Origin: Hyphomonadaceae bacterium
GTDB lineage: Bacteria > Pseudomonadota > Alphaproteobacteria > Caulobacterales > Aquidulcibacteraceae
Assembly (NCBI GenBank): GCA_022843225.1
Contig: JALHOC010000022.1
Location: 1 to 35,905, forward strand
Length of the DNA stretch: 35,905 nucleotides
Direction: 5' to 3'
Position numbers and translations under genes: made by a program
Shown here: positions 1,616-27,130 of the stretch, in pieces
Position numbering within the stretch: the stretch's first letter is position 1
How the letters are laid out: every line of letters begins with the position of its first letter
The notes under the pieces: generated by a model
What the model was told of the DNA's origin: nothing
What the model saw: the letters and a program-made list of their open reading frames with translations, nothing else
The model's database searches: none

Positions 1616-3949
1616 TTAGCCTGTTTGCTTCTGCTGTGCGGGCGGCGCCATGATCGCGGCTGCCAGATTGGGGCGCTGGCGCGCATAGCGCATCACCGTG
1701 GCGGCGAGCACATCGCGATCGGCGGGCTTGATCATGTGTTCGGCGGCGCCTAGAGCGAGCGCGTGCGCCCGATCCTCGTTGACCGAAAGCACGATCACCG
1801 GGATGTCACGCGTTTTGGGGTCTTGCTTAAGACTCTGCAGCACGCGCCAGCCGGAGCGATCCGGTAGGAAGATGTCGAGCAACACCAAAGCTGGGCTTTT
1901 GGCGCGTGCAAGTGTGAGTCCGGCGTCGCCGCCGCCGACGCCTTGCACGGCAAAGCCCGCGCGCGTCAGCGCGCGCGCGACAAGTTCACGTGCGTCAGCT
2001 TCGTCTTCGATAACCACCACGAGCGGCGCATCAGGGGCGCCTTGCGGCGCGTCTATTGGCGCGGCCGCGCCCCGGGCGGCGGCTGCGTCCTGGAACAATG
2101 CTGGCACGTGCAGCGTGAATGTGGCGCCTTGGCCGAGCGCGCTCTCGACCGAGACGTCGCCGCCCAGCAATTGTGCGAGACGCCGCGTAATGGTGAGGCC
2201 AAGTCCAGTGCCGCCATATTGACGCGTGATTGACGCATCGGCTTGGACGAAAGGCTGAAACAGGCGTGACATGTGATCGTCCGACATGCCGATGCCGGTA
2301 TCGGCGACAGTAACGAAAATCTGGCTGACCCCGTGGTGATCGCGCAACGACACGCTAACGTCGATTTTTCCGTCTTTCGTAAACTTGCAAGCGTTGGAGA
2401 GCAGGTTGAGCACGCATTGGCGCAGGCGCGTTGCGTCGGTGTGGGCGACGTTTGGCGGCACGTCGCAGGCTAGCGATAGGGTATTGCGGTTCTGCTCGGC
2501 GAGCGGACGCACTGTTTCAAGCAGATCTTCCAGCAATTCCCCGGCGTCGAAGTGTGCGGGCGAAACATCGAGGCGTCCGGCTTCTATCTTCGAAAGATCG
2601 AGAATCTCGTTGATCAGGGTAAGCAGGTGACGCGCCGCCGCCAGAATACGGCTTAGGTCCTGCGCCGCAGGGCTGTCGCCCTTGTCTTCTGCGTCCTCCT
2701 GCAGCATTTCCGCATAGCCGATGATCGCGTTGAGTGGCGTTCGCAATTCGTGGCTCATGCCCGCGAGAAACTGCGACTTGGCTATATTGGCGGCCTGCGC
2801 CTCGTGATGCGCATGCACAAGTTCATTGATCGAGTTTGCGATGACGGCCCGTCGTTGCTCGATTAACGTGAGTTGCGTTTCCAGACGTGAGATTGGATCA
2901 GTGTTGGCGTGTTTAGGAGTAGTCTCCGGTGTCGTCGGAATTGTGCGGGTTCCGCCGTGCGACAATTCATTGCTGATCACCATGAACGACCGTGCTTGGG
3001 CCGCGAGCGTCTGCTCCGTTTGATCCACAAGAGACGAGAGCGCGGCCAAGTCAGCAGCCGCGCCCGCGCTGGGCTCTGTCGTGCAGGTCAGGCGCGCAGG
3101 CGTTCCGTCAGGCAGCGTCCGCATAAATCCTTGGTGGCGCACGCGCACACGAGAGCCATCGGAACGGATCACGTCGTGCTCGAGGGCGAAGGCGCGCATC
3201 GTGGTGCGGTCTGAGCCGAAGGCAGCGCGCACCAAGTCTCGCTCCGCCGCCGGTGCGAAGCAGGCGTTCTCGACGATGTCGCGGTATGTGACGACCCGCC
3301 CCAGAATATGTTCGAGACGGTCTGCGCCAAAGAGGGCTTCGGTGGTGAAGTCCGCCTCCCACGTTGCGGATGCGCCTGCGGCGTGGGTCATGTTGAGCTG
3401 GCGCACGAGTTCAGCGTTCTCGTCGCGCATCCGCGCGTTGACATTGACAACATAAAGCGTGGCTGCCGTAGCAAACCCGATGCAAGCCAGGATGCCCAAC
3501 GCGGATACAGGGGACCCCGACGATGCCGCGAATACAAACGCAAGAACGACGGAGGGCGCGATCGCTGGCAGCGCCTGGCGGAGCGTCGGTCCGGTGATCA
3601 TGGTATGAACGGCGATCGCACCTAGCATCGCAACTGCCGTGGCGGTTCCCATTGGATGAGGCGCGAACCAAGCTAGGGCCGCGGAAGCAGCAACGCCCGA
3701 CGCAACCGCCCCATCAAGCATCATCCTGACGTTGCGTTCGGAGATTTTGTTGGAAAGAGCTTTGCGTAGCTCTTCACCCAAGAGCGCCAGACCAAGCCAA
3801 ACGGCCGCCAAGGGCGCGCCTGCTGTGCTCGTCACCCCCCCGGCCAGGAGCGCCATCAGGACATGACGCGCGCGCGGCCCATGCAGCGCGGCGGCGGCAA
3901 TGCGCGCAATTCCAGCATGGTTGACGAAATCTTGCACGGCCCGCCCCAA
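1616..3949 (-). CDS. Hybrid sensor histidine kinase with C-terminal receiver domain
   Basis: A 777-residue membrane-bound hybrid kinase. Hydrophobic segments span about residues 30-170 (several TM helices, no large periplasmic loop). A PAS-like region follows (about 195-290), then a helical linker. The HisKA H-box is FLAGMSHELRTPLN with His400; the ATPase domain has Asn519 in the N-box, DTGIGM near 550 and GGTGLGL near 579. The receiver domain (about 640-755) has the acidic pair in EDEAD, phospho-acceptor Asp692 in LLDIFLPD and Lys741. All catalytic residues look intact. The start given is TTG without a clear ribosome site, so the true start may be internal (an ATG at residue 32). Signal and output partner are unknown; an orphan Hpt lies at 14506. 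Confidence 0.9.
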   Translation of the reverse strand: MGRAVQDFVNHAGIARIAAAALHGPRARHVLMALLAGGVTSTAGAPLAAVWLGLALLGEELRKALSNKISERNVRMMLDGAVASGVAASAALAWFAPHPMGTATAVAMLGAIAVHTMITGPTLRQALPAIAPSVVLAFVFAASSGSPVSALGILACIGFATAATLYVVNVNARMRDENAELVRQLNMTHAAGASATWEADFTTEALFGADRLEHILGRVVTYRDIVENACFAPAAERDLVRAAFGSDRTTMRAFALEHDVIRSDGSRVRVRHQGFMRTLPDGTPARLTCTTEPSAGAAADLAALSSLVDQTEQTLAAQARSFMVISNELSHGGTRTIPTTPETTPKHANTDPISRLETQLTLIEQRRAVIANSINELVHAHHEAQAANIAKSQFLAGMSHELRTPLNAIIGYAEMLQEDAEDKGDSPAAQDLSRILAAARHLLTLINEILDLSKIEAGRLDVSPAHFDAGELLEDLLETVRPLAEQNRNTLSLACDVPPNVAHTDATRLRQCVLNLLSNACKFTKDGKIDVSVSLRDHHGVSQIFVTVADTGIGMSDDHMSRLFQPFVQADASITRQYGGTGLGLTITRRLAQLLGGDVSVESALGQGATFTLHVPALFQDAAAARGAAAPIDAPQGAPDAPLVVVIEDEADARELVARALTRAGFAVQGVGGGDAGLTLARAKSPALVLLDIFLPDRSGWRVLQSLKQDPKTRDIPVIVLSVNEDRAHALALGAAEHMIKPADRDVLAATVMRYARQRPNLAAAIMAPPAQQKQTG

Positions 3950-22826: not shown

Positions 22827-23258
22827 ATGCCGCTGAAACTGTCCCTGCGCCCGGGCGAAAGATTTGTCGTCAATGGCGCGGTCGTCCAGAACGGAGATCG
22901 TCGCGCCGCTTTGGTTCTGCAGAACAAGGCCTCGGTGCTGCGCGAAAAAGACATCATGCAGCAGGACGAGGCGGACACGCCGGCCAAGCGCATCTATTTC
23001 CCGATCATGCTCATGTACCTCGACGATTCCGGGCGCGACAAAGCCTATACCGAGTTCGCCCAGCGGCTGAACGAGTTCATGGGCGTTGTGCGCGACCCCG
23101 TCGTGTTGGCCGAATGCATCGGCGTTTCCAAAGAAGTAATGGCCGGCGAATACTACAGAGCGCTGATGCGCTGTCGGAAGCTCATGTCTTACGAAGCCGA
23201 GCGCTTGGGGTTAAGGAATGTCGATCAAAGCCTACCAGCGCGTGGCCACGCAGGCTGA
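22827..23258 (+). CDS. flbT: Flagellar biosynthesis repressor FlbT
   Basis: A 143-residue FlbT, an alphaproteobacterial RNA-binding regulator that acts on the 5' leader of flagellin mRNA and promotes its decay when the hook is incomplete (known from Caulobacter). The N-terminus MPLKLSLRPGERFVVNGAVV and RRAALVLQNKASVLREKDIM are typical of the family. CGGGAGGAGAG precedes ATG 22827. Its 3' end overlaps flaF by 41 bases. The flagellin gene follows flaF, so FlbT and its RNA target lie together. The leader hairpins are at 23637-23697. Confidence 0.95.
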   Translation: MPLKLSLRPGERFVVNGAVVQNGDRRAALVLQNKASVLREKDIMQQDEADTPAKRIYFPIMLMYLDDSGRDKAYTEFAQRLNEFMGVVRDPVVLAECIGVSKEVMAGEYYRALMRCRKLMSYEAERLGLRNVDQSLPARGHAG

Positions 23259-23565
23259 GACGCCCCGGGATCTCGAATATCGGGCTTTTGGCCAAGTGAC
23301 CGCAGGCCTCGTGCGCCTCAAGGAGGAGAATGTGGGCCTAAGCGGCGTCGCGGAAGCGCTCGACGCCAATCGCCGGCTCTGGAATTTGTTGAGCGCCGAT
23401 TGCTCGCTGCCAGAAAACCAATTGCCGCTGCAATTGCGCGCGCAGATTATTTCGCTCGCGTTGTGGGTCGCGCGCTACTCAAGCGAGGTCCTGCGCAACG
23501 GCGCCGACATCGAGCCGCTCGTCGAAGTCAACAAGTCGATGATGGAAGGCCTCGCGGCCCGTTAG
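23218..23565 (+). CDS. flaF: Flagellar biosynthesis regulator FlaF
   Basis: A 115-residue FlaF, a small helical regulator required for flagellin synthesis and secretion and which acts with FlbT in Caulobacterales and Rhizobiales. Family features seen are AYQRVA near the N-terminus, ETPRDLEYRAFGQVT, and NRRLWNLLSADCSLPENQLP (about 53-72). It starts inside the 3' end of flbT (41-base overlap) with GTTAAGGA upstream, implying translational coupling. It ends 161 bases before the flagellin start. Confidence 0.95.
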   Translation: MSIKAYQRVATQAETPRDLEYRAFGQVTAGLVRLKEENVGLSGVAEALDANRRLWNLLSADCSLPENQLPLQLRAQIISLALWVARYSSEVLRNGADIEPLVEVNKSMMEGLAAR

Positions 23566-23636
23566 GTTCGGCATCGCAATCAACGCCAGATTAACCTATT
23601 TCGCTTACGAACAGGTTCAGGAGCGGGGAACTGCGT

Positions 23637-23697
23637 AAAACGCGGTCAATCGCGCCGTTTCGAATAGGGCAAACGCCCAACCGGCCAAAACGACCGG
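23637..23697 (+). promoter_or_regulatory. Three consecutive hairpins in the flagellin leader
   Basis: Upstream of the flagellin ATG lie three short stem-loops: AAACGCG...CGCG-C-CGTTT (23638-23660), GGGC-AAAC-GCCC (23667-23678) and CCGG...CCGG (23681-23697). The ribosome site AAGGGG follows at about 23713. FlbT, encoded two genes upstream, is known to act on flagellin 5' leaders, so these are candidate FlbT-responsive structures. Stems two and three are only 4 bp long. Confidence 0.45.
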
Positions 23698-23726
23698 GAA
23701 CAAGATGTCCAGAAGGGGCTTCGTGA

Positions 23727-24917
23727 ATGACCAGCGTTAATACAAATTACAGCGCCCTCGTTGCGCTGCAAAACCTCACCAAAACCAACACGGAACTGAG
23801 CCAAGTTCAGAACCGCATCAACACCGGCCTCAAGGTCTCGTCGGCCCGCGACAACGGCGCGGTGTTCGCCATGGCCGAAGGCCAACGCACCCGCGTGTCC
23901 GCGCTCGGCGCCGTTCGTGACGGCATCGATCGCGCCAACTCGGTGATCGACGTCGGTCTCTCTTCGGGTGAAGCCATCGGCGACATCCTGAAGCAGATGA
24001 AGGAAAAGGCCGTCGCCGCGCAAGCCAGCGATTTGTCGACCGACCAGCGCGCCGCGCTGCAGGCCGACTTCACGGCCCTGCGTACGTCGATCAACCAAAT
24101 CGCCAACTCGGCCACCTTCAACGGCATCAATCTGGTGGCGTCGGGCGGTTCGAACCTGTCAGTGATCACATCGGACCTGCAAAACTCGACGCAGGGTCGC
24201 CAAGTTCAATCGACGACGATTGCCGGCACGGCGCCTGGCCTGTCCGCTTATGTGGTTGGCAATGGCTCTGTCACGGCTTCTGACGATTCCACGTTCAACC
24301 TGAACGGCGTGGCGATCGGCACCGTCGACGTCACGTCAACGATGACTGTCGCGCAGTATCTGTCAGCAGTCTCGAGCGCCACTGGCGGTCGCGTCAGCGC
24401 CAGCTACAACCAAAGCACCGGCCAGTTCACGTATGTGGCGCCGGAAGCTGTCTCTGGCACCAACGAACTGAGCATCACCACGGCCGGCACGGCCCGTTCT
24501 TGGCTCGGCCAAGGCGTGGCGGCTGGTGCGGTCAGCTCGGCGCCGCTCACGGCCACGGTCAACGACCTCGACTTCACCGTCGATGGCTCGGGCGCTTTGT
24601 CGTCAGTGACTTCGTCGCTCGACCTCAACAACAGCACCAATGCCGGCACGGCATCGGCCGCGATCACGACCGCGATCGACACGCTGAACCGCCAATTGGC
24701 GACGCTCGGCTCGCAAGCCAAGGCGCTAGACACCCAAAAGACCTTCCTCGGCAAGCTGTCCGATGCGGTCGAAAAGGGTATCGGCTCCCTGGTCGACGCC
24801 GACCTCGCCAAGGAATCGGCGCGTCTGCAATCGCTGCAAGTCAAGCAACAGCTTGGCGCGCAAGCTCTGTCGATCGCCAACTCGGCGCCGCAGATCGTGC
24901 TCTCGTTCTTCCGCTAA
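23727..24917 (+). CDS. Flagellin
   Basis: A 396-residue flagellin, the filament subunit exported by the flagellar type III system. Conserved D0/D1 N-terminal helices (NTNYSALVALQNLTKTNTEL, INTGLKVSSARDNGA) and the matching C-terminus (KESARLQSLQVKQQL, ending in VLSFFR) are intact. The middle (about 140-300) is a Ser/Thr/Gly/Ala-rich variable domain, making it longer than typical Caulobacter flagellins (about 270). There are no cysteines. AAGGGG lies about nine bases before ATG 23727. It follows flaF by 161 bases and is closed by an intrinsic terminator. No convincing sigma-54 box was found. Confidence 0.96.
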   Translation: MTSVNTNYSALVALQNLTKTNTELSQVQNRINTGLKVSSARDNGAVFAMAEGQRTRVSALGAVRDGIDRANSVIDVGLSSGEAIGDILKQMKEKAVAAQASDLSTDQRAALQADFTALRTSINQIANSATFNGINLVASGGSNLSVITSDLQNSTQGRQVQSTTIAGTAPGLSAYVVGNGSVTASDDSTFNLNGVAIGTVDVTSTMTVAQYLSAVSSATGGRVSASYNQSTGQFTYVAPEAVSGTNELSITTAGTARSWLGQGVAAGAVSSAPLTATVNDLDFTVDGSGALSSVTSSLDLNNSTNAGTASAAITTAIDTLNRQLATLGSQAKALDTQKTFLGKLSDAVEKGIGSLVDADLAKESARLQSLQVKQQLGAQALSIANSAPQIVLSFFR

Positions 24918-24936
24918 ACGCGAAGATAACGAACAG

Positions 24937-24970
24937 GCGGCGGGAGACTTCGGCCTCCCGCCGTTTTCGT
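24937..24970 (+). terminator. Intrinsic terminator after flagellin
   Basis: CGGCGGGAG (24937-24945) pairs with CTCCCGCCG (24954-24962), nine bp, around a loop containing C-TTCG-G, a stable tetraloop. It is followed by TTTTCGTT. It lies 20 bases after the flagellin stop and is the clearest rho-independent terminator in the window. Confidence 0.85.
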
Positions 24971-25023
24971 TGCCGCTTGTCGGCGGTTAACGAGGTGTGA
25001 ATTTATTCGTTTCGGACTCGTTA

Positions 25024-25044
25024 GTGTTAATGTTTCGTTAACAC
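25024..25044. promoter_or_regulatory. CtrA box: TTAA-N7-TTAA inside a perfect inverted repeat
   Basis: GTGTTAA-TGTTTCG-TTAACAC is a perfect inverted repeat with seven-base arms. Its core, TTAA (25027-25030), seven bases, TTAA (25038-25041) followed by C, matches the canonical CtrA binding consensus exactly. It lies about 84 bases upstream of the flagellin-like gene in an AT-rich stretch. CtrA is the cell-cycle master regulator that drives flagellar genes in Caulobacterales. Confidence 0.7.
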
Positions 25045-25127
25045 ATTTGCTGTTGGTTCCCGCGTGCGGCGAAGCGCGCCGCGCGTTCTCACCTGCGTGG
25101 GGCGCGCGATCCGAAGGAGCGGGCAGC

Positions 25128-25877
25128 ATGGTCTCGACGATTGGTCCAAATTCAGCGCCGGGCGCGAGCGCGCTGGGCGTCGATCCGCGTTTTCAACGTC
25201 TAGGCCCGACCTCCACGGAGCATCGGCAGGACGCTACGCCACAAACGGACAGCGTTGAGATCAGCGCCGCGTCTCTTGCTGCCGCGCGCGAAAGCGTACG
25301 CGGCGGGCTCGATCAAGTGAATCAAGCGCTGGCGCTGGGGCGTGAAGCGCAGGCGTTTCTCGTGAACATCCAGGCTTTGGCCCGCGATGGCGCAGCGCAG
25401 GCTGACCTGGACGCCGCCTTGAAGGATTTCGCGCAACGGGTTGAGAGCGCTGTTCAGCGTGGCGCGCGGCTGGTGACAGGCGAAGATGTGGCCATCCACG
25501 CCGAGCCGGGCGCCGCGCCAGTGACCGCGCCGGGCGTGGACCTCCGCTTGAAGCAGCCGCCGCGCGCCAGCGATGTGCTTCAGGTCGGCGCCGACGCCAA
25601 GATCGAAGACGCGAGCTTGCCGCAAGCCGCTCAAAAATCTCTCGAAGCCCTGCAGACGGCGATGGGCCGCTTGCTTGACGCCGCCCGCGCGCTTGAAGCG
25701 CACCAGGGCTTCATTGGCGCGGCGGAAAGCGCCGTCGCGGCGAATGTACGCCGTGACCTCGACACCGAAGGCGCGCGCTTATTGGCGTTGCAAGTGCGTC
25801 AAGGCCTGGAGGCGGTGGGGGCGCGCGCGATTGCCAACGCTGAGCCGCAAGCTGTGTTGGCGCTCTTCCGGAGTTAA
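25128..25877 (+). CDS. Flagellin-like protein without the N-terminal D0 helix
   Basis: A 249-residue protein whose C-terminus mirrors flagellin: DLDTEGARLLALQVRQGLEA and IANAEPQAVLALFRS align with the flagellin C-terminal D0 helix, about half of residues identical over 38 positions. Residues 55-125 (VNQALALGREAQAFLVNIQA and later QRGARLVTGEDVAI) resemble the first D1 helices. The canonical N-terminal D0 helix is absent, replaced by a Pro/Ser-rich stretch and QTDSVEISAASLAAA, a motif also common in flagellar proteins such as FlgM. There is no variable central domain. AAGGAG lies about nine bases before ATG 25128. A CtrA box precedes it. A role in the filament or as regulator/cap is inference. 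Confidence 0.7.
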   Translation: MVSTIGPNSAPGASALGVDPRFQRLGPTSTEHRQDATPQTDSVEISAASLAAARESVRGGLDQVNQALALGREAQAFLVNIQALARDGAAQADLDAALKDFAQRVESAVQRGARLVTGEDVAIHAEPGAAPVTAPGVDLRLKQPPRASDVLQVGADAKIEDASLPQAAQKSLEALQTAMGRLLDAARALEAHQGFIGAAESAVAANVRRDLDTEGARLLALQVRQGLEAVGARAIANAEPQAVLALFRS

Positions 25878-27130
25878 AGCGGTCGCCACGAGGCGCTACG
25901 GATGTCGATGAGGTCGTCATCGCCTTCGTCGCGCAATTTCAGCCAAACCCGGCGTCCCGCCTGGTAGGCGTGGAATCCGAGGATCGCGAGCAATCCCATC
26001 AATGCCGCCGCCGCTACCGCGACCGCGATCGTGAGTTCACGTGTAAAGGTGAGCTGGCCGCGCGCCGCCTCCATCAAGTTGCCGTCGCGCTGCAATCGCT
26101 TGGCGGCTACCGAAGCCCGCGCGCCGGCGGCCTGGGCGACCAGTCTGAGCTTGGCGATATCGCGCATTTCGGTGGCGTGCGTGAGTAGCGCGACCGCCCC
26201 GCCATGGGTTGTCGCCTCGCTCATGGCGCCGATCTCCGCGAGTACGCCCGCCAGGCGCCGCGCCGCGTCGCGATCAACGGCAGCGCGAAAGGCGGCGGAG
26301 GCGTTGGCGTAACTGGAAAGGTCGCCATTCTGCGATCCCGCGATGGCGGCCTGGCGAAACGCCTCGATCGGGATCGCTGCTGACGCCAAAGCGCTGATCT
26401 CGGCGGCGAGGCCCTGCGGGTAGTCGTCACGGCGGCTGACATCCAGGAGCGCGGCGGCGCCTTTGGAGACTTGCGGAGAGACATCTCCAGCAAGGCCGAG
26501 GCTAAAGCCCGCCAAGATAAACTGGAGGGCATCCGTTGAAGGCTCAGCGAGAAGCGCGCGCGCCATCAATTCAAAGTCGCGCGGATCTATCAAACTGGTC
26601 TGCGCTACGCGCTCGGCGACGGCCGCAGAGGCGCGACGCGACAATAGCGGCACCATGGATTCGTAGCGCGCGCGTGTGCCAGGCGTCAGCATGTCAAGCG
26701 CGACCAACTCGATCTGGGCGTCATCGGCGCCGGCGGGCAGGCGCCGCTCCAACTGGTTGCGCGCGCTTTGTGGCAGCATGCCGCGCGCCGACAACAGGAA
26801 ACCGCGCGCGGCCTCGACGTCGCCGTCCATCAATTCCATGGCGACAAGGTCATCCCATTGGCGCTGACGGTCGAAATCGAGCTGGATCAGTTCGCCATTG
26901 AGCAGTTCGACGCGGTCGCTGATGGCGCGCGCGCCAGCCTCGGAATACGCGTAGGCATAGAGTTGATCGCGCGCGATAATGATGAACGCTGCGGCGCTCG
27001 CGAGCGGCAGCAACAGCAAACACACATTGAACGCCAGCGCCGTCATGGCGCCGAGCGATGATTGTCCGCCGCGCTGGGCCCGTACCGGACGCCATGCGCC
27101 TGACACTTTAGCGTGCCTCAAAATCCTCAC
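25874..27130 (-). CDS. Two-TM inner-membrane protein of unknown function in the flagellar island
   Basis: A 418-residue protein I do not recognise. It has a basic N-terminus, a TM helix at about 29-53, a large predominantly helical region (55-365, Ala/Leu/Arg-rich, with repeat-like helical pairs), a second TM helix at about 370-393, and a short acidic cytoplasmic tail ending in RSASWRPL. The middle is therefore probably periplasmic. The start is GTG 27130 with weak support; an ATG at residue 29 is a possible alternative. It is downstream of the flgI operon on the same strand (97-base gap) and convergent with the flagellin-like gene, with interlocked stops, so a motility role is plausible only by position. 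Confidence 0.65.
   Translation of the reverse strand: MRILRHAKVSGAWRPVRAQRGGQSSLGAMTALAFNVCLLLLPLASAAAFIIIARDQLYAYAYSEAGARAISDRVELLNGELIQLDFDRQRQWDDLVAMELMDGDVEAARGFLLSARGMLPQSARNQLERRLPAGADDAQIELVALDMLTPGTRARYESMVPLLSRRASAAVAERVAQTSLIDPRDFELMARALLAEPSTDALQFILAGFSLGLAGDVSPQVSKGAAALLDVSRRDDYPQGLAAEISALASAAIPIEAFRQAAIAGSQNGDLSSYANASAAFRAAVDRDAARRLAGVLAEIGAMSEATTHGGAVALLTHATEMRDIAKLRLVAQAAGARASVAAKRLQRDGNLMEAARGQLTFTRELTIAVAVAAAALMGLLAILGFHAYQAGRRVWLKLRDEGDDDLIDIRSASWRPL

What the first reader, a model, noticed from the sequence alone, without database searches (positions are those of the whole stretch)
25128..25877. Flagellin paralogue missing its N-terminal D0 helix
The sequence shows a 249-residue protein whose last 39 residues align with the neighbouring flagellin C-terminus and whose residues 55-125 look like flagellin D1, but the N-terminal D0 helix and the variable domain are gone. 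Flagellins need both terminal helices to polymerise, so this may be a filament terminator, junction element, chaperone decoy or secreted regulator. The gene is intact with a good ribosome site, so it is not an obvious pseudogene.
Basis: partly seen in the sequence, partly recalled or inferred. Interest (0 to 1): 0.75.

Follow-up and report, generated by a model that had tools for sequence, protein, structure and literature searches.

The report
Flagellin relative lacking its polymerising helix
Beside its single flagellin gene this bacterium keeps a conserved flagellin-derived protein that lacks one of the two helices needed to build a filament, and its gene context suggests it is a regulator that holds back flagellin production until the base of the flagellum is ready.

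Summary

The evidence points to a regulator resembling Caulobacter FljJ, the flagellin paralogue reported to repress flagellin translation together with FlbT, rather than to a filament part. The gene follows flbT, flaF and the flagellin; 29 of 29 genus loci have a perfect CtrA-type box upstream; it lacks the covarying leader RNA of the flagellin and has its own. Of 39 carriers 36 have one flagellin; 19 of 21 non-carriers have several. The tree groups it with FljJ-type flagellins but does not reject another origin.

The mechanism (co-repressor removed by secretion) is inferred; no binding was tested. I found no description of such a protein in my searches. New variant of a known kind.

The parts
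25128..25877 (+). Gene of the flagellin paralogue without the N-terminal D0 helix (249 aa)
25128..25259 (+). Residues 1-44: disordered, Gly/Pro-rich N-terminus in place of the N-terminal D0 helix
   Evidence: pLDDT under 50 for 1-42; replaces the helix of flagellins in the alignment
25260..25748 (+). Residues 45-207: flagellin D1 core with a short loop instead of the variable domain
25749..25874 (+). Residues 208-249: C-terminal D0 segment; 16 of the 38 invariant columns lie in residues 210-249
   Evidence: helices 213-230 and 240-247 at low confidence
25057..25127 (+). Leader RNA of the paralogue (model R1): four short helices, Shine-Dalgarno inside a mini-hairpin
   Evidence: 68.8 bits, outside the training set; covariation counted
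25027..25041 (+). TTAA-N7-TTAA, CtrA-type box (followed by C)
   Evidence: Only one in the window, 0.02 expected; 29 of 29 genus loci
23727..24917 (+). Structural flagellin, the only Flagellin_N match in the genome
23662..23726 (+). Leader RNA of the flagellin (model R2): hairpin with AAAA-type loop and Shine-Dalgarno mini-hairpin
23218..23565 (+). flaF
   Evidence: PF07309 E 1e-31
22827..23258 (+). flbT
   Evidence: PF07378 E 2.4e-46

Best explanation
It is this family's counterpart of FljJ: a flagellin turned into a regulator that cannot polymerise. Shown: an intact, conserved gene; flagellin D1 core and C-terminal D0 segment kept, N-terminal D0 helix gone; a CtrA-type box; a leader RNA different from the flagellin's; a place beside flbT, flaF and the single flagellin. 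Inferred: CtrA switches it on early, with the hook-basal-body genes. Together with FlbT it blocks translation of the flagellin mRNA through the hairpin leader. When the export gate is ready, FlaF hands the paralogue over for secretion, probably by its C-terminal D0 segment; the co-repressor leaves the cell and flagellin is made. Loss of the N-terminal D0 helix would let it be secreted without being built into the filament.
For: Conservation in 29 of 30 genus genomes and 39 of 60 family genomes; dN/dS 0.05-0.13 in 9 chosen pairs. FlbT present in 58 of 60 family genomes. CtrA-type box 91-103 nt before the ATG in 29 of 29 genus loci and in 7 of 8 loci of other genera; the same motif is the ChIP-seq consensus of CtrA in Hyphomonas neptunium (PMC7200025, passages). 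One such box in 20 flagellin upstream regions. Distinct covarying leaders. Leader model R2 ends exactly at the ATG of 3 of 5 structural-type flagellins in three Caulobacter-type loci and at 0 of 2 FljJ-type genes. The FljJ-type gene follows a FlaG gene there, and FlaG lies before the paralogue in 29 of 39 stretches examined. 36 of 39 carriers have one flagellin. Tree: truncated clade with an atypical flagellin (98) and FljJ type (96). Precedent: passages of PMC7591256.
Against: No binding, expression or secretion data. The AU test does not reject an origin from the family's own flagellins (p 0.083). Long branches. The two FljJ-type genes have no full TTAA-N7-TTAA within 330 nt, and a review calls all six Caulobacter flagellin genes RpoN-dependent (PMC3930126). 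Only one of the three Caulobacter-type R2 hits is clearly above chance (20.8 bits; the others 16.4 and 11.9, with a chance hit of 12.8 in the window). G078 carries a weak paralogue with five flagellins and no box. The detection of the last two carriers came from looking at single-flagellin genomes on purpose.
Confidence: 0.57

Rival explanations
1. A minor structural part: a hook-proximal, junction or terminator subunit that docks on flagellin or FlgL through D1 and the C-terminal D0 segment.
For: Well-kept D1 fold and C-terminal D0 segment. FljJ is reported to lie in the filament next to the hook (PMC7591256, passages).
Against: The N-terminal D0 helix is missing in every member seen; a separate CtrA-type promoter box and leader; genomes with several flagellins seem to do without it; the G030 form has almost no D1.
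Confidence: 0.17
2. A secretion sensor or chaperone decoy that acts through FlaF alone: it occupies FlaF until export starts, without FlbT.
For: The C-terminal D0 segment is the most conserved part; FlaF binds all six Caulobacter flagellins, FlbT only FljJ (PMC7591256, passages); flaF is adjacent.
Against: Does not explain the structured flagellin leader with the Shine-Dalgarno in a hairpin or the FljJ parallels.
Confidence: 0.13
3. A secreted protein with a role outside the cell, like FlaC of Campylobacter.
For: FlaC is a secreted flagellin-like protein not needed for motility (PMC4863622, abstract listing and passages).
Against: FlaC keeps D0 and D1 and lacks D2/D3, unlike this protein; close link to flbT, flaF and the flagellin here.
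Confidence: 0.06
4. A decaying flagellin copy.
For: Lost N-terminal helix; mostly invisible to Pfam.
Against: Open frames of one layout in 29 of 30 genus genomes, dN/dS 0.05-0.13, conserved box and leader.
Confidence: 0.01

Closest known systems
FljJ of Caulobacter crescentus (regulatory flagellin, FlbT-dependent translational co-repressor)
   Same: Divergent flagellin paralogue near flbT/flaF; reported CtrA-promoted; in Caulobacter-type genomes placed after flaG and without the R2 leader
   Different: FljJ type is full length with both D0 helices (L048) and goes into the filament; here the N-terminal D0 helix is missing and there is one structural flagellin
FlaC of Campylobacter (secreted flagellin-like protein)
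   Same: Flagellin-like, not a motility flagellin
   Different: Keeps D0 and D1, lacks D2 and D3 (passages of PMC4863622)
FlgM (anti-sigma-28 factor; recalled)
   Same: Logic: a regulator exported by the flagellar gate to release late genes
   Different: Unrelated protein acting on transcription; best FliA match in this genome 66.7 bits against a cut-off of 189.6
F41 fragment of Salmonella flagellin (1io1)
   Same: D1 core without a complete D0 (best structural match)
   Different: Laboratory fragment, also with the variable domains; here the N-terminal truncation is natural and the C-terminal D0 segment is kept

Membership tests
Structural flagellin | D1 core fold | tested here: met
Structural flagellin | Both D0 helices, N- and C-terminal | tested here: not met
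   Residues 1-42 disordered; no Flagellin_N match; C-terminal segment present
FljJ-type regulatory flagellin | Groups with FljJ apart from structural flagellins | tested here: inconclusive
   Bootstrap 96 for the group, but AU p 0.083 for the alternative; FljJ-type genes identified by identity of 49-53% and position only
FljJ-type regulatory flagellin | Beside flaG, flaF and flbT | tested here: met
   flbT and flaF adjacent; flaG before the gene in 29 of 39 stretches, not in the window, whose 210-base gap is too short
FljJ-type regulatory flagellin | CtrA-dependent transcription | tested here: inconclusive
   Perfect box in 29 of 29 genus loci; no expression data; no full box at the two FljJ-type genes themselves
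FljJ-type regulatory flagellin | Binds FlbT, represses flagellin translation, removed by secretion | not testable with these tools
   Needs two-hybrid, reporter and secretion assays
FljJ-type regulatory flagellin | Full-length flagellin with both D0 helices | tested here: not met
   L048 FljJ type matches Flagellin_N and Flagellin_C; the window protein does not

The most novel reading that the evidence does not exclude
A family of mostly single-flagellin bacteria uses a dedicated flagellin that cannot polymerise, made of D1 plus the C-terminal D0 segment, as a secreted translational checkpoint, with two different covarying leader RNAs, one on the target flagellin mRNA and one on the checkpoint gene; in one genus it may have shrunk to a disordered tail and the C-terminal segment alone.
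Probability: 0.45. Interest if true: 0.75.

Novelty: new variant of a known kind. Interest (0 to 1): 0.62.

Why it matters
FlbT-FljJ control is described in Caulobacter, where six flagellins blur regulation and structure. Here one flagellin and one paralogue that should not polymerise would separate the two, and would show which part of a flagellin is enough to report that the hook-basal body is ready. The two defined leader RNAs also make it directly testable what FlbT recognises, which a 2015 review lists as unresolved (PMC4347634, passages).

Tried and rejected
Pseudogene: rejected (in 5 of the 9 pairs dS is above 1, so the ratios there are rough). Chance C-terminal match: rejected. FlgM-like sigma-28 control: not supported, no FliA match over the cut-off. 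Rfam at E up to 1 on 23300-25300: one match, ffh sRNA, minus strand 25148-25194, 24.9 bits against a gathering score of 35, taken as chance. PDB relatives of FlbT and FlaF: none at E up to 0.01. Wider distribution: profile A5 matched 42 of 299 order genomes, 37 of them in the family and 5 weak ones (E 5e-4 to 1e-3); I fetched 4 of these 5 and the matches lie in full-length flagellin frames. In the class 1 of 385 genomes matched, the window's own. A5 at E 0.001 had missed G079 and G030, so absence by A5 is not proof.

Weak points of the RNA work. R1 was built on 17 of 30 leaders, picked by me for similar length. Against 500 shuffles, cells paired (90.4 against 85.1%), double-change cells (21 against 5.8) and the covariation score are never reached, but pairs with a double change (6 against 4.6; 128 of 500) and further pair types (20 against 19; 181 of 500) are ordinary. 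The window leader alone folds only a little better than shuffles (z -1.75), and its own minimum-energy fold differs from the R1 structure. Off-target R1 hits reach about 30 bits, so the 7 of 30 leaders under 32 bits are not secured by score; 23 of 30 score 47 or more, 6 of them outside the training set. R2 was trained on leaders of nearly all carrier genera, so its presence there is circular; only the Caulobacter-type hits are independent, and they are weak.

Foldseek against the whole PDB did not run; only the second look by VIA-align 2 was obtained. The FljJ paper of 2020 in Developmental Cell is not held; I know it from passages of PMC7591256 and from recall.

Full report

Conservation. In the genus 29 of 30 genomes carry it, the window's own included. 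In the thirtieth, G013, the contig ends at base 3174, inside the flagellin gene. Nine pairs that I chose give dN/dS 0.05-0.13. Of 38 invariant columns, 16 lie in the last 40 residues. In the family, profile A5 matches 37 of 60 genomes. I then looked on purpose at the two single-flagellin genomes without a match, and with a broader profile found a diverged copy in G079, with a FlaG-like frame before it and a TTAA-N7-TTAA seen by eye, and in G030 a 115-residue frame that keeps the C-terminal segment but almost no D1. The G030 form may be a remnant. The same profile gave no truncated copy in the fetched pieces of three multi-flagellin genomes, G031, G080 and G033. Named records with close relatives are titled Hyphomonadaceae (4 of 6) or Alphaproteobacteria (2 of 6).

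One flagellin or several. Counting these, 39 of 60 genomes are carriers. Of the 39, 36 have exactly one Flagellin_N match; the exceptions are G012 (2), G083 (2) and G078 (5). Of the 21 non-carriers, 19 have 2 to 16; the others are G013 (broken contig) and G082, which has no FlbT match and one sub-threshold flagellin match. This comes from 14 genera, 7 with and 7 without carriers, so there are few independent events.

Promoter. The window has one TTAA-N7-TTAA, at 25027-25041; 0.02 are expected. The box lies 91-103 nt before the ATG in 29 of 29 genus loci and before 7 of 8 paralogues of other genera (G078 lacks it). A following C is invariant in the 30 leaders aligned. TTAA-N7-TTAAC is the CtrA consensus found by ChIP-seq in Hyphomonas neptunium (PMC7200025, passages). 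Among 20 flagellin upstream regions of other genus genomes one has a box, and the window's flagellin has none. Against this, the two FljJ-type genes of Caulobacter-type genomes have no full box within 330 nt.

Leaders. The paralogue's leader is a four-helix structure ending at the ATG with the Shine-Dalgarno in a mini-hairpin; its limits are told under Tried and rejected. The flagellin has another leader: a hairpin with an AAAA-type loop, then a Shine-Dalgarno mini-hairpin. In 30 leaders 97.0% of 300 cells pair, with 25 double-change cells against 5.0 in shuffles, and all five measures exceed nearly every shuffle. Its model ends exactly at the ATG of 3 of 5 structural-type flagellins in three Caulobacter-type loci (20.8, 16.4 and 11.9 bits) and at 0 of 2 FljJ-type genes. 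In Caulobacter FlbT binds the flagellin 5' UTR and represses translation (PMC3930126 and PMC4347634, passages). That this hairpin is the FlbT site is my inference.

Link to FljJ. In Caulobacter FljJ controls translation of the other flagellins, is the only flagellin bound by FlbT, is relieved by secretion, lies next to the hook and cannot form a filament alone (PMC7591256, passages). G093's other flagellin is closest to Caulobacter FljL among solved structures. Calling the divergent ones FljJ is inference from identity and position. In the window family a FlaG-like frame lies before the paralogue in 29 of 39 stretches; the 10 misses include the window counted twice, the two Caulobacter-type stretches that Pfam does recognise, and one stretch cut short by a contig end. 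The window has no room for FlaG (210 bases) and its genome gave no FlaG match. The tree joins the 23 truncated sequences (support 100) with an atypical full-length flagellin of G033 (98) and the FljJ type (96); the AU test leaves an origin from the family's own flagellins open (p 0.083).

Reading. Together this favours a regulator over a filament part. The step from a full-length FljJ to this form would be the loss of the N-terminal D0 helix. FlbT binding, co-repression and FlaF-dependent secretion are inferred from FljJ. In searches of open-licence papers (listings, with passages read) I found no description of a flagellin paralogue without the N-terminal D0 helix; subscription papers are mostly not covered.

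Noticed in passing
23662-23726: The structural flagellin has its own strongly covarying leader RNA (AAAA-type hairpin plus Shine-Dalgarno mini-hairpin), with no Rfam match.
   Followed up: partly
24918-25127: flaG, usually between flagellin and paralogue in this genus, is missing here; the genome gave no FlaG match. Two other genus loci (L005, L011) have an equally short gap.
   Followed up: partly
L056 (G030), minus strand, frame of 115 residues: A very short paralogue that keeps the C-terminal D0 segment but almost no D1; a minimal form or a remnant.
   Followed up: partly
L060 (G033) 2706-3533 minus strand: An atypical full-length flagellin that branches next to the truncated clade; perhaps an intermediate.
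   Followed up: partly
25874-27130 minus strand: A 418-residue frame with no Pfam match at E up to 1, convergent with the paralogue gene and overlapping its end by 4 bases.
   Followed up: no
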